45,396 nucleotides of DNA, taken from positions 1 to 45,396 of the forward strand of contig JADGPN010000003.1 in assembly GCA_017882465.1 (NCBI GenBank), in the 5' to 3' direction. The notes under the pieces are model-generated. The model did not search any database, had not been told where the DNA came from, and saw nothing but the letters and a program-made list of their open reading frames with translations. Below are positions 5,372-8,256 of the stretch, piece after piece (the stretch's first letter is position 1; the number at the start of each line of letters is the position of its first letter). The translations under genes were made by a program, and so were the position numbers. The DNA is from Solirubrobacteraceae bacterium (lineage in GTDB: Bacteria; Actinomycetota; Thermoleophilia; Solirubrobacterales; Solirubrobacteraceae).

Positions 5372-5456
5372 CCGCGGCGGCCACTCGGCAGTGCCCGTCG
5401 TCGCGCGGGACGCAAACGGCGGTCGCCGGGACGTGACTCGACCGCTGCCCGAGGTC

Positions 5457-6490
5457 CTATCGGAAGCGGATGCTGACCCTGCAGCCGGCGGTGTGCTGAG
5501 AGCCGGCCTTCGTGGACTGCCAGTACACGTGGAGCGCGTGGTGCTGGGTCACGTGCTTCGGCTTCGTGACCGACGCAAGTGTCATATGCGCCCTCTGGAG
5601 CAGGGCCTTCGCGGCGGCGAGGGTCCTCCCTGCAGGTTCGGCGTGGCGTACGCCGCCTGCACGGCACTCGTCGTAGCGGAGCCCGCCGCCATCGATCCGC
5701 CGGCGCTCGTCGCCGTGACCACGACGCGGATCCGATGACCGACGCTGCTGCGCGGCAACACGTAGCTCGCGGAATCGCCACCGTTGCTGCTGCAGCTTCT
5801 GCCGGCGCCATCGCACGTCTGCCGCTGGTAGGCGTAGCCGGTGGCGCAGCGCGTCCCCCACGAGTTCTCGATCCGCATCCCGTTCTGGTCGTAGCCGAGC
5901 ACCGTCACCGCGTGCCAGCCCTGGAACGGCCCCCGGTCCTGTTCATACGGATAGGCCCCGCCGTTGCCGGATCTCACGGCGTAGAAGTCCCGGTAGACCG
6001 GGATCGAGATGACAACCGGGGTTCCCTGAGCGAGAGCTGCCTCGATTGACGCCCGGTCGGTGCCGACGTCGGTGTAGCCGGTGAGCTTCCACTGTGCCGC
6101 GCTGGCGATCTCACTGGCGCTGGGTTGATCTGACCAGTCGAAATCGCCCCTGGAAGTAGTCGGCGCGGTTGTCAACGCCCTGTGACCTCGCGATGTCGAG
6201 GTTCGCGTCGATGCCGCTTCCGCTGTCCTGCCCCCGGTTGGTCCGCGAGTAGGTGTACATCGGGCTCGGAGCCGCCGGGCGCCGGGAGGTCGTCACGCCT
6301 CTCCCAGTAGCCCAGGGCGGTGTTGGCGGTGGCCCAGGCCGAGCAGGAGTTGACCTGGCCCTGATCGCCGGGAGATGGCATATCTGGTCAGGTCAACGTG
6401 CTCCGGCAGGGAGACCACGCTCCGTTCCCACGGTTTGAAGCGGCGGCAGCAAGCAGCGACGCCTTTGCCTCGATCAGGTTGAGGTTGGGG
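5457..6490 (-). pseudogene. Decayed C1 (papain-like) peptidase with C-terminal Ig-like and PASTA-like segments, several frameshifts
   Basis: Fragments across three frames: FKPWERSVVSLPEHVDLTRYA / GDQGQVNSCSAWATANTALGYWE / MYTYSRTNRGQDSGSGIDANLDIARSQGVDNRADYFQG / FDWSDQPSASEIASAAQWKLTGY..GWHAVTVLGYDQNGMRIENSWGT..SVGHRIRVVVTATSAGGS / GRTLAAAKALLQRAHMTLASVTKPKH. Confidence 0.8.
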
Positions 6491-6566
6491 AGACCTCCTC
6501 TGTCATCGGCCGCCGGACATGCCTGCGCCACGTGGCACGACGCACAGGTCGCCGGAGGACTACGAA

Positions 6567-6681: not shown

Positions 6682-8256
6682 CTAATGGCCTGCGCCGAGC
6701 ATCCGGCCCAGCAGGTTCTCGGTCAGTCTGACCAGCCGCCGATCCGCCGCGCGCGGCGCGTCCGGGGAGGTCGAGGGCACCGGCGAGAGCCCGAGCTGCC
6801 AGCCCATCGTGCCGGCCGAGAACACGAGCGCTCCCGACCGTGCTCGGTAGAGCGTGCTGTAGGTCTGATCCGACGGGGCGATTCTGCTCTGGCACACCGC
6901 CGATCCGCCGCCGATCACGTCGACCGGGCCCGGCGGCAGCGGCGCGATCCGGTCGAGCTCGTAGCCGACGATCCCGTCCACCACCGAGCCGGCGGTGAAG
7001 CCGGTTCCCCGGAACAGCCATCGCGGCCTCAGCGTCGGCGCCGGTGACCACCCGTAGTAGGCGTAGACCGGCGGGCCGGCCGCGTGGGTGAGGCGCGGCG
7101 TGATGCAGTTCTCGTACACGGTGCCGGTGACCGAGGCGCCGCCGTCAGGAAACCGGCCGCTCGGCTGGGAGCGGTCGACGTCGAGCAGCGCGTGCTGCTT
7201 GTAGGCGATGATCACGTGGTCAGGGTGTCCCGCTTCGCTCGATGCGGGCGTCGCGCGGGCATAGCGGACGCGCCAGCCCATCGTGTCCGAGGTGAAGAAG
7301 GCCAGGTTCACGCCGGCATCGCGGGCGGCGGCGTAGGCGTCGTGCGCCCGCAGGGACCAGTACTCGGAGTGACCGATGTCGAGCACCGCGCGCGCGCCGA
7401 GCAGCTCGGTGGAATGCAGATCGACGCCGGTGTCGGTGGCGTAGGTCAGCGGGTAGCCCTCGCGCTCGAGGAAGCGCACCATCGCGATGTCACGGGCGAA
7501 CAGCTGACCGGCGCCAGTGGCGGTGTCATAGGGCCGGTCGTAGGAAACCTCGATCCCCTGGGTAGTCCCGGTCTCGATCACCGGCGTGACGGCCGGGTAC
7601 AGGTCATCGCCGCCCCAGTCGTTGTAGGCCTCGTAGGTCGCCGTCGCCAGCTGCGCCACCAGCGGCCCGGCTCGCCTGGCTCGAACCACCAGCAGCGTGT
7701 CCTTCTGCGCCCCGGCGCTGGTCACGAGCTTGCCCACATAGACGCCGCTGACCAGCGAGCTCGGCAGGCGCGGCGACCACGTGGCGTGCCAGCGGCACTC
7801 GGTGAGACCCGTCCGGAGGTCGTGATGGCAGGGCGGCTGTCGGATCGCCGGCAGCTGACCGGAGCGCAGCACGAGCCGGCCGCCGCGGCCACCGTACCAC
7901 CCCATCCTGAACAGCTCCACGCGGACCCATCTCGCCCCCGGCGCGTGGACGTAGAAGCGCTCGACCCGCCCGGGCGTGACCTCCTGCTCGGACACATAGC
8001 CCTCGACCAGCCCCGAACCGGGGCGGCCCGAGAGCTGCCAGGCCCGGGTCCCGGGGAGCCGGTTCTCGTCCGCGACCGACAAGGTCGGAGCTACGGGAGC
8101 CAGGGACCGCTGGGGCCCGGGACCGAGCGACGCGGGCGCACCGGTGGCCGCGGTGCCGGGGCCGAGCTCCTTGATGCTGTGACCGCAGGACGCCGCCAGC
8201 AGGGCCAGCACCAGCGCCCCGGCGGCCGTCCACGGCCGCCGCCATCGGGTCCTCAT
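6682..8256 (-). CDS. Lipoprotein with N,N-dimethylformamidase beta-subunit-like domain
   Basis: Signal plus LAASC; VRVELFRMGWYGGRGGRLV..ATYEAYNDWGGDDLY..REGYPLTYATDTGVDLH..DIGHSEYWS. Confidence 0.8.
   Translation of the reverse strand: MRTRWRRPWTAAGALVLALLAASCGHSIKELGPGTAATGAPASLGPGPQRSLAPVAPTLSVADENRLPGTRAWQLSGRPGSGLVEGYVSEQEVTPGRVERFYVHAPGARWVRVELFRMGWYGGRGGRLVLRSGQLPAIRQPPCHHDLRTGLTECRWHATWSPRLPSSLVSGVYVGKLVTSAGAQKDTLLVVRARRAGPLVAQLATATYEAYNDWGGDDLYPAVTPVIETGTTQGIEVSYDRPYDTATGAGQLFARDIAMVRFLEREGYPLTYATDTGVDLHSTELLGARAVLDIGHSEYWSLRAHDAYAAARDAGVNLAFFTSDTMGWRVRYARATPASSEAGHPDHVIIAYKQHALLDVDRSQPSGRFPDGGASVTGTVYENCITPRLTHAAGPPVYAYYGWSPAPTLRPRWLFRGTGFTAGSVVDGIVGYELDRIAPLPPGPVDVIGGGSAVCQSRIAPSDQTYSTLYRARSGALVFSAGTMGWQLGLSPVPSTSPDAPRAADRRLVRLTENLLGRMLGAGH

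What the first reader, a model, noticed from the sequence alone, without database searches (positions are those of the whole stretch)
5457..6490. Multiply frameshifted C1 peptidase / Ig-like / PASTA-like mosaic between two tRNA-Leu genes
On the minus strand the catalytic-Cys segment (GDQGQVNSCSAWA), the middle (MYTYSRTNRGQD..GVDNRADYFQG), the His/Asn segment (GWHAVTVLGYDQNGMRIENSWGT) and a PASTA-like tail are in different frames, needing at least three indels. After ENSWGT the usual end of the C1 fold is missing and the sequence runs directly into GYAYQRQTCDGAGRSC..SVGHRIRVVVTATSAGGS, which resembles actinobacterial secreted Ig-like repeats entered partway through. This suggests a deletion fusion followed by decay.
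Basis: partly seen in the sequence, partly recalled or inferred. Interest (0 to 1): 0.6.

Follow-up and report, generated by a model that had tools for sequence, protein, structure and literature searches.

The report
Decayed secreted cysteine protease gene
This stretch is the broken remnant of a gene for a secreted papain-like protease with attached Ig-like repeats in a soil actinobacterium, disabled by several frameshifts and an internal deletion, and is an ordinary case of gene decay.

Summary
On the minus strand between tRNA-Leu(CAA) and tRNA-Leu(TAG), pieces of a papain-family (C1) peptidase, half an Ig-like repeat and a PASTA-like tail lie in order but in different frames. A frameshift-aware alignment to an intact 1565-aa protein of Solirubrobacter soli DSM 22325 (C1 peptidase, then at least 11 Ig-like repeats) scores 416, against 47 ± 5.5 for shuffled targets. 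It needs three frameshifts in the peptidase; a fourth precedes the PASTA-like tail. Codon usage switches frame at about the same places.

The interpretation needs one change. C1 followed by Ig-like repeats already exists in this family, so the join is best read as a deletion inside one gene, not a mosaic of unrelated genes. The gap equals 61 residues of the S. soli protein: the end of the C1 fold, the linker and the first half of Ig repeat 1.

Two neighbouring genes align without frameshifts. Four congeners have only 10-226 bp at this site and one carries a different gene, so the gene was probably gained here and then decayed. Catalytic Gln, Cys, His and Asn remain, but no function is expected. 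Ordinary pseudogene; reads, not available here, would exclude an assembly error.

The parts
6376..6493 (-). N-terminal remnant before the C1 domain (..LPEHVDLTRYAIS); weakest piece, no signal peptide seen
   Evidence: alignment to S. soli protein; no codon-usage support
6286..6369 (-). C1 piece with oxyanion Gln and catalytic Cys (GDQGQVNSCSAWA), in a second frame
   Evidence: third-position G+C 0.93
6154..6270 (-). C1 middle piece (MYTYSRTNRGQD..GVDNRADY), in a third frame
   Evidence: third-position G+C 0.92
5855..6148 (-). C1 piece with catalytic His and Asn (GWHAVTVLGYD..IENSWG)
   Evidence: third-position G+C 0.85 over 5648-6148
5854..5855 (-). Deletion junction: end of C1 fold, linker and first half of Ig repeat 1 missing (61 residues of the S. 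soli protein), frame kept
5648..5854 (-). Second half of an Ig-like repeat (GYAYQRQTC..RVVVTATSAGGS) and the link to the tail
   Evidence: matches to Ig-like repeats in many relatives
5457..5636 (-). PASTA-like C-terminal tail in another frame, ending at a stop codon
   Evidence: below the Pfam cut-off

Best explanation
A pseudogene of a secreted multidomain protein: papain-family (C1) cysteine peptidase, then Ig-like repeats, then a PASTA-like domain. The working ancestor was most likely exported, its C1 domain cleaving proteins outside the cell while the repeats held or spaced the enzyme at the cell surface (inferred from the domains, not tested). A deletion joined the C1 active-site Asn region directly to the middle of an Ig-like repeat, and at least four frameshifts and loss of the 5' end with its signal peptide ended its function (shown, apart from the original presence of the signal peptide, which is inferred from S. 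soli). Gly-Thr codons on both sides of the deletion could have served as short homology; this is speculation. High third-position G+C in each frame suggests that the decay is recent.
For: Colinear with an intact C1+Ig protein of S. soli, score 416 vs 47 ± 5.5, with three frameshifts and one 61-residue gap; PASTA-like tail aligned with one more frameshift; coding-frame switches seen without any homology; C1 identity by PDB 3ois (cysteine protease), E = 3.9e-11; adjacent genes aligned to homologues with no frameshift; eight gene stretches of the window have no internal stops; the Trp of the Ig-like repeats is replaced in the remnant (YQRQ against YQWQ).
Against: No close intact orthologue was found (best 46% identity over 111 residues), so single mutations cannot be dated or polarised. 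Reads are not available, so assembly error is not formally excluded. The N-terminal piece has no coding signal.
Confidence: 0.88

Rival explanations
1. The gene is intact in the organism and the frameshifts and the gap are errors of sequencing or assembly in a repeat-bearing gene of a metagenome-like draft genome.
For: The genome is a draft of 757 contigs; Ig-like repeats can be collapsed by assemblers; codon bias is still strong in each piece.
Against: Four frameshifts in 1 kb while two neighbours have none; the missing stretch begins in the non-repetitive C1 end; no export signal before the tRNA gene; conserved Ig Trp replaced.
Confidence: 0.08
2. Two unrelated genes, a stand-alone C1 peptidase and an Ig-like/PASTA secreted protein, were fused by a deletion and then decayed.
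For: Most C1 relatives in the order are stand-alone enzymes; Ig-like repeats occur in many other secreted proteins; the join enters a repeat partway.
Against: The best relative of the C1 part has Ig-like repeats in the same order, and the alignment continues across the gap.
Confidence: 0.12
3. The pieces are still expressed as one protein through recoding, or as short separate functional proteins.
For: Catalytic motifs kept; one frame of 197 aa is open.
Against: At least four frame changes in both directions with no known recoding signal; catalytic Cys and His/Asn in different frames; C1 end and half the Ig-like repeat missing.
Confidence: 0.01

Closest known systems
Solirubrobacter soli DSM 22325 1565-aa C1 peptidase with Ig-like repeats (NZ_AUIK01000022.1)
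   Same: Order C1 then Ig-like; 46% identity over 111 residues of the C1 domain; same catalytic motifs
   Different: Intact single frame, at least 11 repeats, complete C1 end, no PASTA match
Short bacterial C1A peptidases of the xylellain type (PDB 3ois; the type is named in PMC10380794)
   Same: Papain family by sequence, Gln/Cys/His/Asn motifs
   Different: Stand-alone enzyme; the remnant is frameshifted and its ancestor carried repeats
Rv2525c-like glycoside-hydrolase-like proteins with a C-terminal PASTA-like domain in the same genus (L143, L144)
   Same: C-terminal tail resembles the remnant's tail (43-46% identity)
   Different: Different enzyme domain

Membership tests
Papain family C1 peptidase (PF00112) | Oxyanion Gln, catalytic Cys, then His and Asn in order | tested here: met
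   GDQGQVNSC, GWHAV and ENSWG present in order, though in different frames
Papain family C1 peptidase (PF00112) | Complete domain in one open frame | tested here: not met
   Three frameshifts and missing end after ENSWG; a pseudogene of this family, not a working member
Actinobacterial Ig-like repeat (PF23197 IG_AIR9 in S. soli) | Sequence match to the repeat family | tested here: met
   Residues 103-180 of the 197-aa frame match repeats in many relatives, best E about 1e-12
Actinobacterial Ig-like repeat (PF23197 IG_AIR9 in S. soli) | Complete repeat with its conserved Trp | tested here: not met
   First half absent, YQWQ reads YQRQ
PASTA domain (PF03793) | Pfam score above the gathering cut-off | tested here: not met
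   11.8 bits against 23.2; resembles same-genus PASTA-like tails, of which one scores 16.2 bits and one is not matched, so only 'PASTA-like'

The most novel reading that the evidence does not exclude
The C1-Ig-PASTA combination was a distinct secreted protease architecture of this soil lineage, moved between species through the variable spot beside tRNA-Leu(CAA), and this remnant is the only trace seen.
Probability: 0.15. Interest if true: 0.3.

Novelty: new member of a known kind. Interest (0 to 1): 0.13.

Why it matters
It is a clear example of a long secreted repeat protein decaying by deletion plus frameshifts, and it marks the stretch after tRNA-Leu(CAA) as a variable spot in this genus. 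For annotation it warns against calling the 197-aa and 134-aa frames as genes. Otherwise it is ordinary.

Tried and rejected
NCBIfam gave no match. The first scan of GTDB contigs with the 197-aa frame found nothing; with the S. soli domain it found only S. soli and a distant Leptospirales protein. A duplicated tRNA-Leu 3' end (attachment site) was sought and not found, so integration by a tRNA-targeting element is not shown. No second copy of the region exists in the same genome. The neighbour control was first run with homologues in the wrong orientation and repeated correctly. The G004 gene in the same spot was first taken for the dimethylformamidase-like gene; Pfam shows an arylsulfotransferase. 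Structure prediction was not run because it would not decide between decay and error.

Full report
What is there. The region occurs once in the genome, a 5.5 Mb assembly in 757 contigs. The closest named genome found in the same family is Solirubrobacter soli DSM 22325.

Homology. The pieces joined with X at the breaks match PDB 3ois, a bacterial cysteine protease, at E = 3.9e-11, from before the catalytic Cys to ENSWG. Pfam gives only a weak C39-like match to the remnant itself, while the S. soli relative is a clear Peptidase_C1. The part after ENSWGT matches Ig-like repeats in many genomes of the order. The tail matches C-terminal PASTA-like domains of same-genus proteins but is below the Pfam PASTA cut-off.

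The key comparison. S. soli has an intact 1565-aa frame with an apparent signal peptide, a C1 domain and at least 11 Ig-like repeats spaced 94-102 residues apart. A frameshift-aware local alignment of window 5380-6566(-) to this protein scored 416, against 46.7 ± 5.5 for shuffled targets, with 115 of 254 residues identical, three frameshifts in the C1 part and a single 61-residue gap between ENSWG and the middle of Ig repeat 1. The gap covers the end of the C1 fold, the linker and half a repeat. A fourth frameshift lies before or within the start of the PASTA-like tail. The remnant is therefore best read as one gene of the C1-then-Ig kind with an internal deletion, not a mosaic of unrelated genes. 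Only S. soli was seen with this form in the family, most other C1 relatives being stand-alone enzymes, which leaves some room for a separate fusion. More distant relatives in the phylum also carry long extensions after the C1 domain, in one case TIG (Ig-like fold) domains.

Independent check without homology. Codon-usage scores trained on intact window genes favour one frame after another along the region, changing near 6300, 6150 and 5650, and third-position G+C is 0.85-0.93 in the frame given by homology for each piece from the catalytic-Cys segment onwards. The N-terminal piece shows no such signal. The pieces were thus coding until recently.

Decay or error. The dimethylformamidase-like gene on one side and the membrane-protein gene on the other align to homologues without any frameshift. 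Four frameshifts in 1 kb beside neighbours without any, a deletion and no visible signal peptide before the tRNA gene point to real decay. Only reads could settle it.

Site. In four same-genus genomes (G008, G019, G022, G023) only 10-226 bp separate tRNA-Leu(CAA) from the membrane-protein gene, against 1195 bp here. G004 has an arylsulfotransferase-like gene in this spot, and G015 has a phage-type integrase followed by a tRNA-like fragment about 2 kb from the membrane-protein gene. The spot is variable, which fits gain of the peptidase gene followed by decay. No duplicated tRNA end marks an insertion in the window.

Function. The ancestor's action as a secreted or surface-held peptidase is inferred from its domains. 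The remnant is not expected to work: no single frame holds both the catalytic Cys and the His/Asn pair, and no export signal was seen.

Noticed in passing
window 5372-6566; L081, L083, L084, L086, L087: The stretch between tRNA-Leu(CAA) and the conserved membrane-protein gene is variable in the genus: nearly empty in four genomes, an arylsulfotransferase-like gene in G004, the pseudogene here.
   Followed up: partly
L085:619-1950: G015 carries a phage-type integrase directly followed by a tRNA-like 3' fragment near the same membrane-protein gene, which looks like one end of an integrated element.
   Followed up: partly
window 6682-8256: An intact gene for an N,N-dimethylformamidase-beta-like (DMFA2_C) secreted protein sits between the inositol-monophosphatase-like gene and tRNA-Leu(CAA), where several congeners have none.
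   Followed up: partly
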